Shown here: in pieces, positions 21,989 to 32,992 of the stretch | How the letters are laid out: the number at the start of each line of letters is the position of its first letter | Numbering within the stretch: the first letter of the stretch is position 1 | From: Parafilimonas terrae | Lineage (GTDB): Bacteria > Bacteroidota > Bacteroidia > Chitinophagales > Chitinophagaceae | Assembly: GCF_900115755.1 (NCBI RefSeq) | Contig: NZ_FOXQ01000001.1 | Span: 310,001-374,000, forward strand | Length of the DNA: 64,000 nt | Reading direction: 5' to 3' | Translations under genes and position numbers: made by a program | Notes under the pieces: generated by a model | Databases searched by the model: none | Told to the model about the DNA's origin: nothing | Seen by the model: only the letters and a program-made list of their open reading frames with translations

Positions 21989-24900
21989 TCATTCCCCTTT
22001 AAGGAACAGAGGTTTCGTGCTTTCGCTGTGTGCCGAAAATTCGGGCGCATACATGCATTGAACACTGGCAATGCCTGCAGAAAAAATTCCTGCATGAGTA
22101 ATGTAAACGGCATATTCCAAAATATATGTGCCTTTTGAAAGATGGTCAATAAAGAAATTAGAAGCTGCGTCTTTTGTTGATTCGTAGTAGCCAAAACCGT
22201 CCCGCCATTTGTATCCGCTCAAAACATTTACAGGTTCCATCGAAGCTGCACGAAGGTCTTTCAGATAAACATAATCCATATCACGGTCTGTTTTCAAAGT
22301 AAGCCTTACAATAATTTTATCGCCGGTTTTTAATGTATCTTTTTCATTAATAGCATATAGCATCTTGCCTTTATCAGAACTTTTTTCTATGAATAATTTT
22401 TTGCTGACAGAAAGTGGCGATGTTGCCGCTGTTATCTTATCCATATCTTCAAAATACTGCCAGTAAACAGCGCCATAAGATGATGGATAATTATTGCTTT
22501 TTGCAACCGGGTTTGAAACAGACACTTCAATATTACTCATTGCCGGCCGTATATCTTTTCCATCAATACTGTGCTTTATATAACCGCTGCCGCTTTCCTG
22601 CATTTCGCTAATCGTGCTAACAACTAAATCTCCCAGTTTAATATTCACCGCAAGATTTTGTGTATTGATATTATTGCCTGATAACAAAGCGTAACAGGCA
22701 TCGGCAGTGGCTTTTGTGGTTTCCCAATTGTTAACCTGCTTGTTAAGTATAAGCCACCTGCGCATAGCATTGATGCAAGTATCTCCGGGCGCAATTTCTT
22801 CAAAAGCATTTATTAAAAGCGATTGCGCTTCCAGCGGGCTTTGGTACCAGTAATAACCACTGGAATTATTCTTCCAGTATATGCCTTTTTCAACATCTTT
22901 CACTGCATTTTCTTTAAGTGATTTAATTATATCAAGCTGTGAATTTTTAAATTTTGATAATGGCTGCATTACAGGAAGCAAACGGTTTAAAGCCAGTGCA
23001 ACCATGCCCTGCAGATAAGGCGTTTGTTTCATCCAGTATTGTTCTGCCTGCTTCATATAAAAATCTAACGCTTCAGCAGGAAATGATTTATGCTGTGCTT
23101 CGCCAAAAAAGCTGCGCATATACCAGTACTGGATCATCAGCGGCGTTAATTGTTCTTTTGTAAGGTCTGCCTTGCGCTTTACGAGTGCTTCATATTCTTT
23201 TTCAGCTTCTTTATCAGCATATAACAATGCCTTATTTGTTATCTCATTCAATATGTTTTGTTGCAGTGCAGGAATGGCGTTCAGCTTCTTTAATTTGCCA
23301 ATACCTGTTAAAATATACTGCGTTATATACCTGTCATCATTACCGCCGCTAAACCATGCAAAAGCACCATTGCTTTTTTGCATTTGCTTTAACTGCTGCA
23401 ATATATTTTCCATACTGCTGTTCATTTTTGCAGAGTCAAATAATAACGCAATATTTCTCTTTTGCTGCTGCCCGCCATTTGCATCCGAAACCCAGGGCGT
23501 TTCGTTCAGCAGGATTTGTTTCAGTTCAGGGTTTGTTTCAAGGTTGCTTTCCATTGCCGTTGTATCCTGCTTCCATTTATTAAATACATTTTTAATGGAA
23601 GGGTTTTGCGAAACAATGAATGCGCCCAATACATTGGCATAAAAACGGTTGAAAGTTTGTTCCGCACATTCATGCGGAAACTGCATAAGATAAGGCAATG
23701 ACTGAACAACATACCAAACAGGGTTTGGCGTATATTCCACAGTGAGACTTTCGTTGGTTAAAGTTGATGAATTATTGTTGAGCAGCTTTTCAAATGTGCA
23801 TGTTTTCGATCCTTCGCCTGGCATATATAAAGGAAGCGTTTCTGTAACCAGCAGCCTGTTTGAAAGCACCGGCAATATTCTTTCTTCACCATCGCTGTAC
23901 CGGCCTGACTGCGCTATAATTTTTACAATAAGCGGGTGCGTAAAACTGCGTGGGATATTAACCGGGAAATTCACAACGGTACTTTTATCTGGGGCTGCAT
24001 TGAAGTTTTGTGCAGTGATATTTATTTTAAAAACATCATTTAAAGGCTCATTATTAATAGCATCAAACAATTGCAGCGTTGCTTTGCCGGTTAATACGCT
24101 GCCGCTGAGATTGGTGAGCTTTGCCGTTATATCAATTGTATCGCCCTGCCTTAAAAAACGTGGCAGGCCGGGTTGTACCATCAATGTTTTTTGGGTGATG
24201 ATATTCTGCCATTTTAAACCGAAGGCAGCATCTTTTGTATGCGCCAGGCTCATCCATTTCCAGGTGGTTAGAGCTTCAGGCATAGTAAAACTGAAACTAT
24301 AATTTCCCGCGCTGTCTGCATGCAATTGCGGGTAAAAGAAAGCCGTTTCATTAAAGTTCTTTCTTATCTGCACCTGTGGCTCTTCTTCTTTCTTTTTACC
24401 ATTACGCAAAGCGAATTCTTTTGTAGTGATAACGATTGCGCCATTAGCTGCTTTTGCCCCATACAGCGCTGTTGCTTCGCTGCCTTTGAGGACAATTATA
24501 TTATCAATATCTTCTGCATTGATATCATCTGCTGATTTATCACTGATTACACCATCAATAACTAAGAGAGCTTTTTCATTCAGGCTTGACGTGCCTCTGA
24601 TTTGAATTGACGCAGCAGCGACTGTTACACTTGTCTTTTTTTGTACACCATAAGCAGTTACAACAGCTTTATTATCTCTTGCCGCTAACCGCATTGCCAT
24701 AAATTCAGGATCAGTTGTAAACTGTTTATCGTAATCTTCAGTTTTAATCTTTCTACCGGAATGCTTTTCGGTTTGCAGTTTATAAATTCTTTTAAAACTA
24801 TAGATATTCCAAAATTCATCCGCAGATTGAGCTATATGATCCCGTGCTTTGAATAGCAAATTATTATTATTTCCAGGATAACTTTCTTCTGAACTTTTAA

Positions 24901-27900
24901 CGTAAAGCAAACTGCTTCTCCAATCATTATTTACATAACTGTTTGTATTAAAATAAGGCAAAGCCCATTCATGCTTTTTAAACTGGTCAAGCGACACATC
25001 GTACATACTCGTTAATAATTCCGCACCCGCTTTTGTACCATCATTATTAGCAACCTGCACCGTCCAGGTTTCTTTACTGCCAGGTTCTGTTTTATTCCGA
25101 AAACTTGAATAGGTTATATCCAGGTTCTTTACTTCATTGGCGATATATACCTGCATACCACCGGTATAAAAACGGTTGTGCTTTATAAAAGCATAGTATA
25201 AACCAATATTATCATGATCGGTGGGCTGTATAGTGTATTCAATTTGTTTTTTATTATTATTGAGGTTTATATACTGAAATGAACCCGCTACATTTTTATC
25301 GCCCCTGCTGAGCTTTTTAATTACAAACACATCAGCGTCACTTGTGCCAATCAGCAACTGCGCTTTATCACCGGGAGCGCCGGTATTACTTATATTCTGA
25401 GAGAAATTTGTTTGCGGCGAAGGCAGGCCTGCAGCATTCATATCATACAACTGAACATAACAAACATCTTTAATAGTATCGCCATATTTATCTTTTGCTG
25501 ATACTTCAATACAATACCAGCCCTGCTGCAATTGTTCAGGCAATTTATAGCTGGAAGTATTGGTTGTGTTAAAAGTATCTTTTACAACAGCACCCAGCTT
25601 TGCCCATTCATGATAATCTGTTTCCGCTTTGTATTCATCATAAGGGAAATATTGCTCAAACGTATTTTTATCCATTACAAACTGATCGGGCTGCTGCCAT
25701 AATCTTTTGCGGTACGCTTTTTCAGGTGTTTTCAATCTTTTAATAACAATATCAACATTTGCAGGAATATTTTCAGCCGAATTGTTTTTTGTAGTGATGA
25801 AAATATTTTTAAAATTATTTACTTCGGCGATGGAAGGAACATTTGCCTGCACCACCATTGATTTATAACCCACCATTACACTGGTTGAGCTTTCCCTCGT
25901 TTCACCGTTGGCATCAGTAGCAGATAATTCAATTTTAAAATTGAACAACGGCTCTGTTTGTTTTTCTATTGATGAATCCGGTTTTGAAACAAAACTTATT
26001 TTGAACACACCATTTACATCTGTGCTGATGATGCTGTCTGCGATTTGTGTTTCAGATGAATAGGGCATTCTTGTTCGCCAAAATAAATAGGAATAAGGAA
26101 AGTTTGCCGTGCGTTGAATATTATAGCTGATGCGTGCATTGTCTATATTACTGCCGGCATAAGATTTTACAATACCCGTAACCGTGATGGTATCATTGAG
26201 ACGATAAGAACCTTTCAATGTATCAAACTCAACATAAAAAGTGGGCCGTTTATATTCCTCCACATTAAATTCTGCTTCGCCGTCAAAGTCCAAAGTTTCA
26301 ATTGAAAATTCGCCGGTCAACACATTTTCCGGTAATAAGAATTTTCCGGCAAATGAGCCATATTCATTCAACATTACAAACATGGAATCAATTTGTTTGC
26401 CGTTTGCATCGTAAAGATCAACCTCTATGCTGTCAGTATAATTATAAAGTTTTTGCTGTTTGGTTTTCCCATCTTTGGTCAATACTATGCCTTTATAAAA
26501 AACAGTTTGCCCCGGCCTGTAAATGCTTCTGTCTGTAAAAAAATAAACCCGCGAATTATCTTCTTCATACGTTGAATCATCAACTTCATCATTATCGTTA
26601 TTATAACTATTGCGGTAAGAATAAAGATAATCACCAGTTTCAAGTTTGTCGTTACCCTTCTGCAACATAAGCTTAACATCGCCATAGATGCCTGCATTAT
26701 TATTGAATGGCAAAACGAAATGCCCGGTGCTATCGGTGTATAGTATTTTAAACTTTTTGTTACTCCATTCTTTGTTCTGCTCATTTTGTACAGAAACAGA
26801 GCCGGTGATTTTTACATTTTGCAAAGGCTGGCCGCTTTCGCGGTCAACCACAAAATAATCAAAACCATTACGCAGGTAAGCAAGACCGGAAACCGTTATT
26901 GGTTGCAATGCCAGTTTATCTTTGTCATCGCTGAAATCTTTATTGTTGCTGAACAGGATTGAATAATTGCCAACAGGCAAACCGTCAATCCTTATTTCAA
27001 CGGCGTGCTGCTGGTAATCTTTTGTTTGCGGCAAAGGCTGTATGAATGTTTTTAAAGGCGATAATAAAGCCACACCTTCCCACCGGTTATAATGTTTCTT
27101 CTTGGCAGGTTTATCTATATCTTTTTGCAAAAGCAACCGTGCATATAATGTATCAATGTTCCTATAATTTACCAGCAACCTGAAAGGCATGTTGGGAACA
27201 TTTACCGATTCTGCATTTGTATTTAATTCAGGCTTTTCTATATCGTTTAATAAAGACTTCATGGCTTCGTTGCCATAACAGGAATCAGGCATAGCTGTCA
27301 GTCTTTCTGTTATTATTTTTTTTGATTTTACATAACCGAAACGTTGCGTTGTATCAGTTAAAGCGTTGTAGGATGATGCTTTATCCGCTTCCAGCTTTGC
27401 CAATAAATACCATGCTTCTGCAGCAGGTTTTGCATTAGGAAAACTGCCTGCTGCATCAGTTAACGCGCTCACATAAAGCGCTTCTTTATCATCAATATTT
27501 GCCCTGGCATTCGCCCAATTTATTCTTTCAAGGTTCACATCAATAAAAGCCGAAGGGTCTGCATCAATCTTATGAAACCGCAGCAGTTCCTGGTATAAGT
27601 GTAAAGTTTTTAAAATATGCGAAGCTGTATCTTTTGTAACAAAATTGTACTGCATAAAATTCTGCGCATTTGCCAAAGCATGCACATCAGTTAACTCAAA
27701 CGTATATGCGGGCCTGGATAAATACGCCAGTCCTGTTTTATAATAATCAAGCGCTTCATGCGCAAGCAGATCGTATAATGTGGGCCTTGTATTGGCCATA
27801 TTGCCTTTTATCAATATAGCCTTAATAGCATTGGTATTTGTTTGCTGTAGTATTTGTTTAGAGATAAGAGCTGCTGCATACAGGCTATCAATAATTTCTT

Positions 27901-28342
27901 TGAATTGTGCGTTGCTCCATGTGGCAACATCAGCTTCCTTTATATCAGTTTCTTTACGGTCTCGGTTTTTCCAGGCATTTTGAGAATAAAATTTTTTTAA
28001 GGTATTAGCCAATATAACAGATAGTATAGCTTTTGAAACCGCATCATTTGTGGTGTGCAACTCTGCTTTAAGTAAAACAACTTTATTATTTATATCATCA
28101 TCTGTTGTCTTGTTTTCAAGGCTTAGCCTGTACAGCAAGGCTTTAATAATTTCATCATGCAAACTTTTTACTTTCGCATCATTATATAAAATATTCACTT
28201 TCTTCAAAGCGGTTTTAGGCAGGTCTTTTAAAACGATAAGTGAATCTATCTCTTCCCATTGCTTTGCATAGCTGCTTGCTGTTTGGGCTGATGTAACGAG
28301 GCTGCAACAAATTATTGCAGTTAGCATTATAAGTTTTCTCAT
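21989..28342 (-). CDS. Bacterial alpha-2-macroglobulin with an embedded SusC-type TonB plug domain
   Basis: A 2117-residue secreted protein (signal peptide 1-19, SLVTSAQ). Residues about 20-450 are helical; macroglobulin domains follow, including VYFFTDRSIYRPGQTVFYKG (MG2, about 600). At about 1225-1310 there is a TonB-receptor plug-like domain: IQIRGTSSLNEKALLVIDGV, then INAEDIDNIIVLKGSEATAL and YGAKAANGAIVITTKE, nearly the SusC plug consensus. Next comes the A2M signature FYPQLHADSAGNYSFSFTMP with TWKWMSLAHTKD, then the thioester site HECAEQ with Cys at 1559 and Gln three residues on. Family members trap proteases through the thioester. The plug domain has no barrel behind it, so it is not a transporter; its position just before the MG7-like part recalls the bait region. 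No pbpC partner adjoins. Confidence 0.88.
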   Translation of the reverse strand: MRKLIMLTAIICCSLVTSAQTASSYAKQWEEIDSLIVLKDLPKTALKKVNILYNDAKVKSLHDEIIKALLYRLSLENKTTDDDINNKVVLLKAELHTTNDAVSKAILSVILANTLKKFYSQNAWKNRDRKETDIKEADVATWSNAQFKEIIDSLYAAALISKQILQQTNTNAIKAILIKGNMANTRPTLYDLLAHEALDYYKTGLAYLSRPAYTFELTDVHALANAQNFMQYNFVTKDTASHILKTLHLYQELLRFHKIDADPSAFIDVNLERINWANARANIDDKEALYVSALTDAAGSFPNAKPAAEAWYLLAKLEADKASSYNALTDTTQRFGYVKSKKIITERLTAMPDSCYGNEAMKSLLNDIEKPELNTNAESVNVPNMPFRLLVNYRNIDTLYARLLLQKDIDKPAKKKHYNRWEGVALLSPLKTFIQPLPQTKDYQQHAVEIRIDGLPVGNYSILFSNNKDFSDDKDKLALQPITVSGLAYLRNGFDYFVVDRESGQPLQNVKITGSVSVQNEQNKEWSNKKFKILYTDSTGHFVLPFNNNAGIYGDVKLMLQKGNDKLETGDYLYSYRNSYNNDNDEVDDSTYEEDNSRVYFFTDRSIYRPGQTVFYKGIVLTKDGKTKQQKLYNYTDSIEVDLYDANGKQIDSMFVMLNEYGSFAGKFLLPENVLTGEFSIETLDFDGEAEFNVEEYKRPTFYVEFDTLKGSYRLNDTITVTGIVKSYAGSNIDNARISYNIQRTANFPYSYLFWRTRMPYSSETQIADSIISTDVNGVFKISFVSKPDSSIEKQTEPLFNFKIELSATDANGETRESSTSVMVGYKSMVVQANVPSIAEVNNFKNIFITTKNNSAENIPANVDIVIKRLKTPEKAYRKRLWQQPDQFVMDKNTFEQYFPYDEYKAETDYHEWAKLGAVVKDTFNTTNTSSYKLPEQLQQGWYCIEVSAKDKYGDTIKDVCYVQLYDMNAAGLPSPQTNFSQNISNTGAPGDKAQLLIGTSDADVFVIKKLSRGDKNVAGSFQYINLNNNKKQIEYTIQPTDHDNIGLYYAFIKHNRFYTGGMQVYIANEVKNLDITYSSFRNKTEPGSKETWTVQVANNDGTKAGAELLTSMYDVSLDQFKKHEWALPYFNTNSYVNNDWRSSLLYVKSSEESYPGNNNNLLFKARDHIAQSADEFWNIYSFKRIYKLQTEKHSGRKIKTEDYDKQFTTDPEFMAMRLAARDNKAVVTAYGVQKKTSVTVAAASIQIRGTSSLNEKALLVIDGVISDKSADDINAEDIDNIIVLKGSEATALYGAKAANGAIVITTKEFALRNGKKKEEEPQVQIRKNFNETAFFYPQLHADSAGNYSFSFTMPEALTTWKWMSLAHTKDAAFGLKWQNIITQKTLMVQPGLPRFLRQGDTIDITAKLTNLSGSVLTGKATLQLFDAINNEPLNDVFKINITAQNFNAAPDKSTVVNFPVNIPRSFTHPLIVKIIAQSGRYSDGEERILPVLSNRLLVTETLPLYMPGEGSKTCTFEKLLNNNSSTLTNESLTVEYTPNPVWYVVQSLPYLMQFPHECAEQTFNRFYANVLGAFIVSQNPSIKNVFNKWKQDTTAMESNLETNPELKQILLNETPWVSDANGGQQQKRNIALLFDSAKMNSSMENILQQLKQMQKSNGAFAWFSGGNDDRYITQYILTGIGKLKKLNAIPALQQNILNEITNKALLYADKEAEKEYEALVKRKADLTKEQLTPLMIQYWYMRSFFGEAQHKSFPAEALDFYMKQAEQYWMKQTPYLQGMVALALNRLLPVMQPLSKFKNSQLDIIKSLKENAVKDVEKGIYWKNNSSGYYWYQSPLEAQSLLINAFEEIAPGDTCINAMRRWLILNKQVNNWETTKATADACYALLSGNNINTQNLAVNIKLGDLVVSTISEMQESGSGYIKHSIDGKDIRPAMSNIEVSVSNPVAKSNNYPSSYGAVYWQYFEDMDKITAATSPLSVSKKLFIEKSSDKGKMLYAINEKDTLKTGDKIIVRLTLKTDRDMDYVYLKDLRAASMEPVNVLSGYKWRDGFGYYESTKDAASNFFIDHLSKGTYILEYAVYITHAGIFSAGIASVQCMYAPEFSAHSESTKPLFLKGE

Positions 28343-29315: not shown

Positions 29316-29905
29316 ACGATTACAATTGTTTGCTGCAAGATAAAGGCTTTTTATTAACGCTATTTACTGCATTGGAAATATATAGGAAAGCGTTAAGAGG
29401 TTTCAAGGGATTACCTGATATTCAAAAACGCTGCATGCATTTTTATTATGTGCATTAATAATTGAAAACGGTTTATAAGTTGGCGTTTCATAATCTCGGC
29501 TTACGTCCTAAATTTGCGTGCAATTAGTTGTTATCTAACTAATTCGATTGCTAACAACATCACTTATTCTGACAAAAATTGCTCACATTTAAAATTCTGA
29601 CACATGAAAAAGTTTAGCTCCAACCAATTTCGTTTATGCTTTCCCTTCATCTTTTGCGCTGCTGTACTCAAACAATAGCCAAAGCTGTTAAATAGGGCTT
29701 TTTATTTATGCTGATAACTACTTCTTATATGTAGTTATGTTGGCCATTCCTGCAAGCAACCAGCATCGGGATACTCACCCAATGTATAGTTGTTATTATT
29801 TATTGTTGAATAATAGCAGCGCCAGGCCGCTATTGAAAGCTTTCGCTTACCATGTTATTCAAATTTTTTTGCTATTAATTTTTATTCATTTCAAAAACCT
29901 TGTTC
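29316..29905. promoter_or_regulatory. 590-bp upstream region of the SusC/SusD pair with dyad elements
   Basis: Between divergent genes, with no plausible ORF. Dyads seen: AATTAGTT/AACTAATT (29522-29544, 7-bp spacer), GTTGTTA/TAACAAC (29527-29533 and 29552-29558) overlapping it, and ATAACTAC/GTAGTTAT (29714-29738). These could be regulator sites or stem-loops in a long susC leader. No exact TAnnTTTG element was found for susC, and no FecI/FecR or HTCS regulator gene is nearby. Confidence 0.4.
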
Positions 29906-32900
29906 ATGAAAAAAATCCCTCAGATCAGAGCAGGCCTTATTACCTGCCTGCTTTTCTGTTTTTACATGGCTACGGGCCAAACAAAAACCGTAACAGGCCA
30001 TGTTACCGACAGTGCACAAAACGGGCTGCCGAATGTTACTGTAAAAGTTAAAAATCAATCCGGCGGCACCACAACAGATGCGTCGGGCAACTTTTCTATC
30101 ACTGTGCCCTCGTCAAACGCCGTGCTTGTGTTTAATTATGTAGGAATGAAAGCGCAGGAAGTTACTGTAGGCGATCAATCAAGCATAACGGTAACGCTAC
30201 TGCCGGATAACGAAAATTCCACATTAAATGAAGTGGTAGTAATTGGTTATGGCACGGTAAAAAAATCAGACCTTACCGGTGCGGTGGCCACAGTTAAAGG
30301 CGACCGGTTAATGGACAGGCCTGTGCCTAATGTTACGCAAGCATTGCAGGGTAAAGTTGCCGGCGTGGATGTAAGTGTTAACAGCAATGCACCCGGCGCC
30401 GGCGCCAAAGTGCGTGTGCGTGGTATTGGCTCTATCAACTCTAACATAGATCCGCTATATGTTGTGGATGGTGTAATTGGCGTTGATCCAAATTCAATAA
30501 ATCCAAACGATGTTGCTTCGCTTGAAGTATTGAAAGATGCATCTTCCACTGCTATTTTCGGGGCACGCGGCGCTAACGGTGTTATTATCATCACTACCAA
30601 ACGCGGAAGAAAAGGCGGCACTACTGTTTCCTATGATGGTAATGTAAATATGGTTGATTTATACAGGCATCTAAAAACGCTTAATTCCGATGAGTTTGTG
30701 CAGGTATATAACCTGGCTTATGCCAATGGTTCAAAATGGGATCCCGATGGCGCAGTGCAAACACCGCCAAAAGCATTGAACCATGAAAACTTTCCTTTAT
30801 TGTTTGATGCCAACGATAAACCATTGTATAATACCAATTGGGAAAAAGAAACTTATAAACCGGCATTCTCTCAAAGCCACCAGCTTAATTTCCAGGGCGG
30901 CGGAGAAAAATCTATATACAGTTTATCATTAGGTTATCTTGATCAGAATGGCCTCATGGTAGAGTCCTGGTTTAAACGCTATTCTGCAAGATTTACGCTT
31001 GATAACGATATAAACAACTGGCTGAAAGTAGGCGGCAATATCAATATAATTAAAAGCAGGCAGCGCATGGTTTCTGATGCTAACGGCGCTTTAAATGTGC
31101 CGAGAATGGTTACGGAAGAAGTACCGATTGTTCCGGTAAAATATCCCGATGGCACATGGGCTGGCAACAATGACATAGCAGGTCTTGAAGGCGGCCCCAA
31201 CCCGGTGAACATTGCTACCAACAGGTACTCGCTTAACAATAATATGCAAATGCTGGGCGATGTTTACCTGCTGTTCCATATTACAAAAGACCTTGATTTT
31301 AAAACAGACTATGGCTATAATGTAAACTCACAGAAAAACAATTTCTATTCATCACAAGACCTGGCGCACCTTTCACAAGACCAGGGTGGCGTAGCTAATA
31401 TCAATGCTTATAATACCACTTACTGGCAGTCTGAAAACTATCTTACCTATAATAAAACTTTCAATAATAATCACAAGTTGACAGCACTGCTTGGTATGTC
31501 ATTCCAGCAATTCAATAATGAAAGGGTGCGTTCAGAAACACAAAATTTCATTGATGATATTTTCCAGTACCATTACCAGCAGGCAGGCTCTGTAAGAAGT
31601 TCCAACGAATCGCAGGATTATCAATGGTCGATGAATTCTTACTTTGCCCGCGCCACGTATGATATAAGCGGCAAATATTTCTTTACAGCAACAGGCCGTT
31701 ATGACGGCTCTTCAAAATTTGGCAAGAATAACAAGTATGCATTCTTTCCATCTGTTGGTGCAGCATGGCGTTTAAGCGAAGAAGATTTTATGAAGAACAA
31801 TACTTCTATCTCTAACTTAAAACTGCGTGCAAGCTATGGCGTATCAGGTAACCAGGAAATTGGCCAGTATCTTTCCATTGCACAGATTCAGCCAAGCTCT
31901 ACGGTGTTGAACGGCGCATCGCAGTCAACTTTATTACCAAGCTATATCGGCAACCCTGATTTGAAATGGGAAAAGTCAGTACAGTTTGATGCAGGCCTTG
32001 AATTAGGGCTTTTTTCAAACCGCATTAACCTTGATCTTGATTTCTATACACGCGATACAAAAGACCTGTTGCTGCAACAACCCACTCCATGGTCTGCCGG
32101 TTTTGTTAACGCGTACGTATACAGGAATGTAGGATCTGTAAGAAATACAGGTCTTGAAGTAAACCTTACCACAGAGAATATCAGAGGCAAAAACTTTACC
32201 TGGACTACCAATTTCATTTTTGCTACCAACAGAAACAAGGTGCTTAAATTAAATGATGGGAATGCAGATATTTTCCCCGGCCCTAATTTCCTCGGCCAAA
32301 ACTTTGTTATCCGTGTTGGCGAACCAATCGGTTCATTTTATGGCATGACAAGGCTTGGAACATACAGCGATAAAGAAGCTGATGAAGCTGCCAAACATGG
32401 CTTAAAAGTTGGCGACAGAAAATATATATATAATGAAGATGGCAGTAACTATTACAGCATTATAGGCCAGGCTTATCCTAAATGGACCGGCACATTCAGC
32501 AGCAGCATGAGCTACAAAAACTGGGACTTTGCTTTTGACATCCGTTTTGTGCAGGGCGTAAATACTGCAGCCAACTTCAAGCATTCAAGTGAAGACAGGC
32601 AAACCATTGCCAACAGCCTCGCCACTGTATTGGATGCATGGACTCCGGACAATCAAAACACAATGGTATCACAGGTGCGCAATTATAAATATGCACAGGA
32701 TTCCCATTTCGATACATGGTGGGTTGAAGATGGTTCGTTTATACGCGGCCAAAATTTTGTGCTCGGTTATACGGTGCCAACATCTCAAACAGCCAAGGCA
32801 AAAATTCAGAAACTTCGTTTTTATGCCAGCGTGCAGAACCTGTTCATTATTACAAAATATACCGGTTACGATCCTGAAGTTGATACATTCAATTCCGGGT

Positions 32901-32992
32901 ATGGGGCAAATGGTTCTTTCTCTCAGAACTTAGACTTCTTTGCTTATCCGCGCCCACGCACATGGAACCTCGGCGTATCACTGGTATTTTAA
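29906..32992 (+). CDS. SusC/RagA-type TonB-dependent outer-membrane receptor
   Basis: A 1028-residue receptor from ATG 29906 (a TTG six bases earlier is not needed). Signal peptide to about residue 23 (MATGQ); carboxypeptidase-regulatory-like domain at about 25-110 (GHVTDSAQNGLPNVTVKVKN); TonB plug at about 115-225 with VRGIGSINSNIDPLYVVDGV and LKDASSTAIFGARGANGVII; then a large beta-barrel ending in the aromatic RPRTWNLGVSLVF. It imports an oligomer through SusD and TonB. Substrate unknown: no glycosidase, peptidase or sigma/anti-sigma gene adjoins. Confidence 0.95.
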   Translation: MKKIPQIRAGLITCLLFCFYMATGQTKTVTGHVTDSAQNGLPNVTVKVKNQSGGTTTDASGNFSITVPSSNAVLVFNYVGMKAQEVTVGDQSSITVTLLPDNENSTLNEVVVIGYGTVKKSDLTGAVATVKGDRLMDRPVPNVTQALQGKVAGVDVSVNSNAPGAGAKVRVRGIGSINSNIDPLYVVDGVIGVDPNSINPNDVASLEVLKDASSTAIFGARGANGVIIITTKRGRKGGTTVSYDGNVNMVDLYRHLKTLNSDEFVQVYNLAYANGSKWDPDGAVQTPPKALNHENFPLLFDANDKPLYNTNWEKETYKPAFSQSHQLNFQGGGEKSIYSLSLGYLDQNGLMVESWFKRYSARFTLDNDINNWLKVGGNINIIKSRQRMVSDANGALNVPRMVTEEVPIVPVKYPDGTWAGNNDIAGLEGGPNPVNIATNRYSLNNNMQMLGDVYLLFHITKDLDFKTDYGYNVNSQKNNFYSSQDLAHLSQDQGGVANINAYNTTYWQSENYLTYNKTFNNNHKLTALLGMSFQQFNNERVRSETQNFIDDIFQYHYQQAGSVRSSNESQDYQWSMNSYFARATYDISGKYFFTATGRYDGSSKFGKNNKYAFFPSVGAAWRLSEEDFMKNNTSISNLKLRASYGVSGNQEIGQYLSIAQIQPSSTVLNGASQSTLLPSYIGNPDLKWEKSVQFDAGLELGLFSNRINLDLDFYTRDTKDLLLQQPTPWSAGFVNAYVYRNVGSVRNTGLEVNLTTENIRGKNFTWTTNFIFATNRNKVLKLNDGNADIFPGPNFLGQNFVIRVGEPIGSFYGMTRLGTYSDKEADEAAKHGLKVGDRKYIYNEDGSNYYSIIGQAYPKWTGTFSSSMSYKNWDFAFDIRFVQGVNTAANFKHSSEDRQTIANSLATVLDAWTPDNQNTMVSQVRNYKYAQDSHFDTWWVEDGSFIRGQNFVLGYTVPTSQTAKAKIQKLRFYASVQNLFIITKYTGYDPEVDTFNSGYGANGSFSQNLDFFAYPRPRTWNLGVSLVF

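What the first reader, a model, noticed from the sequence alone, without database searches (positions are those of the whole stretch)
21989..28342. Alpha-2-macroglobulin carrying a SusC-type TonB plug domain next to its thioester half
The 2117-residue protein contains a near-complete SusC plug signature (RGTSSL...VIDGV...ED..NIIVLKG..ATALYGAKAANGAIVITTK) at about 1225-1310, between the MG domains and the FYPQL/TWKWMSLAHTKD part, with the CAEQ thioester later (Cys1559). No beta-barrel follows, so it cannot be a receptor. Placed near where A2M bait regions lie, it might be a docking module for TonB, SusD or a protease, or a decoy exposed on cleavage. A macroglobulin that mimics or binds outer-membrane import machinery would be new biology.
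Basis: partly seen in the sequence, partly recalled or inferred. Interest (0 to 1): 0.75.

Follow-up and report, generated by a model that had tools for sequence, protein, structure and literature searches.

The report
Protease trap baited with receptor-plug sequence
A bacterial protein that probably traps proteases carries a piece of the cell's own nutrient-receptor plug in the loop that proteases are meant to cut, and many related bacteria carry similar receptor pieces in that same loop, which suggests, without proof, that the bait copies something proteases attack.

Summary
Confirmed: the 2117-aa ORF 21989-28342(-) is a thioester alpha-2-macroglobulin (A2M) with a SusC/RagA-type plug segment (Pfam Plug 1.5e-8; SusC model 3.8e-22). 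The plug lies in the bait loop; AlphaFold folds about 1260-1309 as a small unit inside a low-confidence linker. It is not unique. Of 152 distinct bait loops sampled from this A2M family, 49 match a full-length SusC profile at the strict threshold, all within its NTE/TonB-box/plug part, none in the barrel or in the other five frames; the earlier 110-bait run had no hits in shuffles, reversed baits or the rest of the A2M. 38 of 40 less related A2Ms lack it. The commonest piece is the TonB box (46 loops, relaxed threshold). Pieces are patchy on the A2M tree, sometimes reordered, and constrained in a Flavobacteriaceae clade. A rarer A2M family carries NTE and plug at the same place. Best reading: the bait mimics receptor peptides that proteases attack. 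TonB docking and non-adaptive capture remain serious rivals; nothing here tests mechanism. Nine open-licence literature searches found no description.

The parts
21989..28342 (-). alpha-2-macroglobulin family protein, 2117 aa
28283..28342 (-). probable signal peptide (residues 1-20, ends VTSAQ)
   Evidence: read from the sequence; no signal-peptide predictor was run
26294..26551 (-). MG2 domain (598-683)
24980..25765 (-). MG strands before the bait loop (860-1121), ending in the conserved block MYDVSLDQF
24569..24946 (-). bait linker predicted mostly disordered (1133-1258)
   Evidence: ten-residue means of pLDDT 34-58 up to 1249, 63 in the last block; some short low-confidence helices
24635..24670 (-). 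degenerate TonB-box-like element KAVVTAYGVQKK (1225-1236)
   Evidence: (relaxed threshold)
24413..24613 (-). SusC-type plug segment (1244-1310); confident folded core about 1260-1309
24341..24412 (-). second low-confidence linker (1311-1334)
24086..24346 (-). A2M domain PF00207 (1333-1419)
23657..23668 (-). thioester motif CAEQ (1559-1562)
22040..22414 (-). bMG10 domain (1977-2101)
29900..32992 (+). neighbouring genuine SusC receptor (NTE, plug, barrel), used for comparison; not part of the A2M

Best explanation
SHOWN by sequence: an A2M with an intact thioester motif has, in its bait loop, a segment related to the TonB-box/plug part of SusC-type receptors, and bait loops of this family hold such segments in scattered lineages. 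INFERRED: the segment is part of the bait. In the published SusC model TonB extracts the plug into the periplasm, so TonB box and plug would be accessible peptides there. A periplasmic A2M that shows the same peptide would be cut by proteases that attack those receptors, and cutting would trigger the thioester trap; the flexible linkers around the small folded core would supply the scissile bonds. The steps 'periplasmic', 'cut here' and 'selected because it looks like the receptor' are all inference.
For: Position: orthologues in three same-family and one same-order genome have a shorter variable linker there; in orthologue L021 Pfam's bait region domain ends before the linker and the A2M domain starts after it. 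Low-confidence linkers on both sides of a confident core. C-x-E-Q in 71 of 74 near-full-length members. SusC HMM: 49 of 152 baits hit, HMM positions 25-251 of 1025 only, 0 in the other five frames; in the 110-bait run 36 hit and there were 0 hits in ten shuffles of each, in reversed baits, or in the rest of 85 A2Ms. Library-wide scans of 85 baits: Plug is the top Pfam family (9 of 85) and TIGR04056 the top NCBIfam family (21 of 85), both at E up to 1; SusD is not among the 25 of 38 Pfam families shown nor the 23 NCBIfam families. Plug-core dN/dS 0.12-0.34 in the 8 (overlapping) pairs where both carry it. PMC7782687 (passages): plug removal by TonB is postulated, and the plug was cleaved in an earlier preparation. 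PMC4498604 (passages): cutting of a disordered bait triggers bacterial A2M.
Against: No protease is known here that cuts TonB boxes or plugs, and there are no cleavage data. PMC7782687 calls the spontaneous expulsion of the plug seen in vitro likely non-physiological. The best conserved part in the window protein is a folded core, and folded cores tend to resist cutting. NTE/TonB-box pieces are also in a VWA/YfbK and a TonB_C-like protein of the same genome, not known as baits. 103 of 152 baits have no strict hit. One clade of A2M plugs is not rejected, so much of the scatter may be loss from one old insertion. None of seven same-genus genomes shows this A2M.
Confidence: 0.37

Rival explanations
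1. TonB docking: the bait loop carries a TonB box so that the TonB C-terminal domain (or TonB_C-like proteins) binds the A2M, placing it at the import machinery or letting TonB pull on the bait.
For: The TonB box is the commonest piece: 46 of 152 baits align over it at a relaxed threshold (E up to 1), with E 39/45, V 42/46, V 42/46 and G 38/46 at its key columns (these rows were found by likeness to SusC, so part of the conservation is by selection of rows). It resembles the VDEVVV box whose loss gives Bt1763 strains a growth defect on levan (PMC7782687, passages). In 91 of 112 related pairs it is more alike than the rest of the bait (pairs overlap and were chosen for having the box). The box also occurs in a VWA protein and in a protein with a weak TonB_C match in the window's genome.
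Against: The window's own box is degenerate (KAVVTAYG). 11 of 152 rows carry the plug core label alone, without NTE or box at the strict threshold. No binding data.
Confidence: 0.25
2. Non-adaptive capture and decay: the bait loop tolerates foreign sequence; the abundant, soluble N-terminal part of SusC genes was inserted (once or several times) and is eroding, with no role for its receptor identity.
For: 8-75 matches to a SusC plug region per genome in 10 genomes. One clade of A2M plugs is not rejected (pAU 0.656 and 0.549). The loop diverges fast (35% identity against 89% in the downstream core for L105/L107). Barrel pieces might be purged as insoluble, which would explain their absence.
Against: Plug-core dN/dS 0.12-0.34 in 8 overlapping pairs; box more alike than the surrounding bait in 91 of 112 pairs; SusD absent from the families shown; a piece like another receptor type in at least one bait (L124); 38 of 40 less related A2Ms without a hit.
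Confidence: 0.3
3. The plug segment still closes or binds a real receptor barrel or SusD.
For: Foldseek top hits are chains of SusC-type systems.
Against: Pfam positions 31-107 only; many baits carry a TonB box without a plug core ('G' label alone in 13 of 152 rows).
Confidence: 0.03
4. Assembly or gene-fusion artefact.
For: None found.
Against: One open frame; similar insertions at the same place in independent records, e.g. L033, L037, L043, L075.
Confidence: 0.01

Closest known systems
Bacterial type I alpha-2-macroglobulins (E. coli ECAM/YfhM, Salmonella sA2M)
   Same: MG domains, bait region before the A2M domain, C-x-E-Q thioester motif, bMG10; Foldseek top hit of the 860-1435 model is 5a42 (ECAM), with 4u48 (Salmonella) fifth
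   Different: About 590 residues before MG2 without a confident Pfam match and a bait loop holding SusC-like sequence
SusC/RagA TonB-dependent transporters
   Same: TonB-box-like element and most of the C-terminal part of the plug; a profile of ten plug-bearing stretches plus the window's SusC plug finds 9 SusC/RagA-type PDB sequences at 1e-17 to 1e-22
   Different: No barrel and, in the window protein, no NTE match
A rarer A2M family with NTE + plug before PF00207 (here L025, L026, L150/L238, L239-L241)
   Same: Receptor module at the same place; C-x-E-Q in the three checked, L025, L026, L150; Pfam NTE and Plug in L025 and L238
   Different: NTE present and plug longer; L026 and L240 have the NTE but no Pfam Plug match at E 0.01, though the SusC HMM aligns a plug stretch in both
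Complement C3/C5 (recalled, from no call)
   Same: A folded domain (anaphylatoxin) sits near the cleavage site of a thioester-type MG protein
   Different: Unrelated domain, released as a signal

Membership tests
alpha-2-macroglobulin (type I bacterial) | MG2, A2M and bMG10 domains in order | tested here: met
alpha-2-macroglobulin (type I bacterial) | C-x-E-Q thioester motif | tested here: met
   CAEQ 1559-1562; C-x-E-Q in 71 of 74 near-full-length members
alpha-2-macroglobulin (type I bacterial) | disordered bait region before PF00207 | tested here: met
   hypervariable and low pLDDT; the A2M_BRD model is not itself matched in the window protein but is in orthologue L021
alpha-2-macroglobulin (type I bacterial) | protease cleavage and covalent trapping | not testable with these tools
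   needs protein
SusC/RagA TonB-dependent transporter | beta-barrel (PF00593) | tested here: not met
   no match
SusC/RagA TonB-dependent transporter | plug domain | tested here: met
   partial only: Pfam positions 31-107 of 107, above cut-off; fold match modest (best E 1.8e-3, none at 0.001), first 13 hits all from SusC-type systems
SusC/RagA TonB-dependent transporter | N-terminal extension PF13715 | tested here: not met
   absent in the window protein; present in some other baits
SusC/RagA TonB-dependent transporter | TonB box | tested here: inconclusive
   KAVVTAYG lacks the Glu and first Val of the consensus
NCBIfam TIGR04056 | curated score 368.25 | tested here: not met
   78.5 bits

The most novel reading that the evidence does not exclude
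Periplasmic macroglobulins of Bacteroidota use self-mimicry: their bait loops are repeatedly rebuilt from the TonB box and plug of the cell's own nutrient receptors, so that any protease able to disarm the import machinery is drawn to and trapped by the decoy. The bait then records which envelope parts are under proteolytic attack, and TonB-box/plug pieces are a shared currency of several non-receptor envelope proteins.
Probability: 0.3. Interest if true: 0.85.

Novelty: new variant of a known kind. Interest (0 to 1): 0.68.

Why it matters
What bacterial macroglobulins trap is largely open. A bait made of a recognisable self sequence names candidate targets (TonB box, plug) and gives testable predictions. 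It also points to TonB-box/plug sequence serving outside receptors, in A2M, VWA/YfbK and TonB_C-like proteins.

Tried and rejected
Plug tree to decide between one and many origins: 80 rows, 83 columns, 53 of 76 inner branches open; A2M plugs as one clade not rejected (pAU 0.656 for 29 rows, 0.549 for 22 rows). So many origins are not claimed for the SusC-type core.

State counts on the A2M tree (at least 23 changes for any label, 11 for plug core, 11 for NTE, 21 for the box; 152 rows, 48 labelled; quick tree with 48 open branches) cannot separate gain from loss.

Motif-order statistics: the loose IRG pattern gives 6.5 of 152 in shuffles and can match the NTE, so only single examples of changed order are cited (L029, L038, L054, L100). 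The motif patterns were chosen after seeing the baits; the profile and library scans do not depend on them.

Gene neighbourhood of the 80 named loci plus the window: of the 14 largest clusters of neighbours printed, none includes the window; their representatives read as metabolic or housekeeping genes (by eye, not searched). No functional hint.

dN/dS: NG86 with Jukes-Cantor, dS often above 1; 15 pairs run, plug-core values for 10. L136/L202 (0.37) and L121/L137 (0.99) compare a carrier with a row lacking the core and are left out of the quoted range; the other 8 share several rows.

Base composition shows no sharp break at the plug: GC 0.39-0.44 in the windows that cover it, 0.31-0.42 in the rest of the gene.

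Full report
What is there. The ORF 21989..28342(-) encodes 2117 aa. Pfam gives MG2 (598-683), Plug (1229-1302, E 1.5e-8, above the curated cut-off), A2M (1333-1419) and bMG10 (1977-2101), and no receptor barrel. NCBIfam gives a partial SusC/RagA match at 3.8e-22, far below that model's cut-off. The thioester motif CAEQ is at 1559-1562; its C, E and Q are invariant in five aligned sequences.

Where it sits. Orthologues in three genomes of the same family and one of the same order align on both sides and have a shorter, variable linker between the conserved blocks MYDxSLDxF and R-x-N-L-x-ETAFF. In orthologue L021 Pfam's bait region domain ends before this linker and the A2M domain starts after it. 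The plug therefore lies in the bait loop. An AlphaFold model of residues 860-1435 (62 sequences, mean pLDDT 77) has confident MG strands on both sides, low confidence over most of 1133-1254 and over 1315-1334, and a confident small unit at about 1260-1309 (ten-residue means 83-92) with strand-strand-helix-strand-helix-strand order. A second model, of 1195-1325 (11 sequences, mean pLDDT 65), agrees for the core (means 82-92). Its first 13 Foldseek hits in PDB are from SusC-type systems, at modest E-values (best 1.8e-3, none at 0.001). A profile of plug-bearing bait stretches plus the window's SusC plug finds nine SusC/RagA-type PDB sequences at 1e-17 to 1e-22.

How general it is. One scan of genome contigs kept the best 80 of at least 573 relatives. 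Their bait loops, with the window's and four more, are hypervariable, and many show receptor-like pieces. Scans of these 85 baits against whole libraries put Plug first in Pfam (9 of 85, E up to 1) and SusC/RagA first in NCBIfam (21 of 85). I then built a full-length SusC profile from 21 receptors of the window's genome (1025 positions). On 110 distinct baits (two of 29 further loci gave no boundaries and two were duplicates) it hits 36, all between positions 35 and 252; it hits nothing in ten shuffles of each, in reversed baits, or in the rest of the 85 A2Ms. With 40 more loci from a phylum survey (140 of 392 genomes had some A2M match; regions) there were 152 distinct baits. Of these 49 hit, positions 25-251 only, and none in the other five frames, whose stops were read as X. 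At a relaxed threshold there were 81 in-frame hits against 1 in the other frames, and 6 of the 81 ended beyond position 260, in barrel territory. All 17 members of one Flavobacteriaceae clade hit. These are related, best-hit samples, so the fractions describe this sample, not the phylum.

Controls among other A2Ms. I took 40 of the lower-scoring A2M places (ORFs 1807-2151 aa). 38 have no hit, one has only an NTE-like stretch (L151), and one (L150) belongs to another family. That family (L025, L026, L150/L238, L239-L241) has an NTE and, by Pfam or the SusC HMM, a plug at the same place, with C-x-E-Q in the three checked. Only five matches stronger than 1e-50 turned up in 392 genomes; one of them, L242, gave no plug row, and L240 and the fragment L026 have no Pfam Plug match at E 0.01.

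Which piece is commonest. 46 of 152 baits align over the TonB box at a relaxed threshold, with E 39/45, V 42/46, V 42/46, G 38/46, Y 37/46 and G 38/46; rows were found by likeness to SusC, so this conservation is partly by choice. A strict pattern for the box is in 31 of 152 baits, in 0 of 85 remainders, and in 1 of 40 of the other set, that one being L150. In Bt1763 deleting or replacing the box VDEVVV gave a growth defect on levan like that of the SusD deletion, and the NTE is PF13715 (PMC7782687, passages). Among 112 related pairs the box is more alike than the rest of the bait in 91 (mean 0.51 against 0.32); pairs overlap and both members were chosen for having the box. In the window protein the box is degenerate (KAVVTAYG).

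History. On an A2M tree of 152 rows the any-label state changes at least 23 times and the plug core at least 11 times; direction is not known. In eight overlapping Flavobacteriaceae comparisons where both carry the core, its dN/dS is 0.12-0.34, against 0.05-0.13 in the downstream A2M part: constrained, though less than the A2M itself. A plug tree does not resolve the origin, and one clade of A2M plugs is not rejected. At least one bait holds a piece of another receptor type: the L124 bait matches seven ORFs of about 950-1020 aa in its own and two related genomes at 36-49% identity; one of them, L301, reads as NTE plus plug (by eye). In genome G209 the first part of the L199 bait piece is 69% identical over about 50 residues to part of a 3080-aa ORF, in a stretch that is not plug-like, and 56% to a linker of a VWA protein, L304; both the bait and L304 also have a receptor-like stretch (ARSNKSVIRVDGLDVSDQF; RGGRSNETQVRVQGTDVGDQF), seen by eye. 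So in at least one genome the loop shares sequence with other envelope-like proteins.

Not only A2M. In the window's genome a YfbK/VWA protein (L306) carries NTE, TonB box and a shortened plug start, and a 438-aa protein after a sigma-factor-like ORF carries NTE, TonB box and a weak TonB_C match (E 0.0018, below cut-off). In contrast, of 60 Pfam Plug matches in that genome this A2M is the only one in an ORF longer than 1198 aa. The first point weakens an A2M-only explanation and fits a common partner, which could be TonB or a protease.

Mechanism. PMC7782687 (passages) postulates that TonB removes the whole plug during import; it also calls the spontaneous expulsion seen in vitro likely non-physiological and mentions proteolytic cleavage of the plug in an earlier preparation. 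Bacterial A2M is triggered by cutting a disordered bait (PMC4498604, passages). Putting these together, the bait would imitate exposed receptor peptides and trap what cuts them. I give this 0.37, TonB docking 0.25, and non-adaptive capture with partial domestication 0.30. None is tested here.

Print. Nine searches of an open-licence full-text library for macroglobulin with plug, SusC, TonB-dependent receptor plug, Bacteroidetes, bait region and related terms listed no paper that, by title and abstract start, describes this arrangement. Subscription papers, preprints and domain databases were not searched. I saw passages of PMC7782687, PMC4498604 and PMC5764988; other papers only as listing entries.

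Noticed in passing
L306:433-2388 (-): YfbK/VWA protein of the window's genome with NTE (PF13715), TonB box LDEVVVAGYG and LSGKAAGIYIRG before the VWA part.
   Followed up: partly
L306:3461-4777 (+): 438-aa protein after a sigma-factor-like ORF: LRGKVSGF, NTE, LNDVVVTGYG and a weak TonB_C match; may be an anti-sigma-like protein (by eye).
   Followed up: partly
L025, L150/L238, L239-L241: Rare A2M family with NTE and plug-like stretch directly before the A2M domain.
   Followed up: partly
G001-G007: No strong match to this A2M in seven same-genus genomes (completeness 63-100%), although other genera have it: patchy gene.
   Followed up: no
L055, L061, L066: Three of 74 near-full-length family members without any C-x-E-Q.
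   Followed up: no
L304 and L199 (genome G209): A VWA protein linker and an A2M bait share a YPNPQIA... piece, and each also has a receptor-like RGGRSN/ARSN stretch.
   Followed up: partly
L307:1753-3902 (-): A TonB receptor appears split into an NTE+plug-like ORF (239 aa) and a barrel-like ORF (448 aa); read by eye.
   Followed up: no
L064, L072, L083: Members of this A2M family in records titled Cloacimonetes, WOR-3 and Opitutia; the L072 bait holds an NTE-like domain, the L064 bait a receptor-like LHIRGGRADEVTYTIDG (by eye).
   Followed up: no
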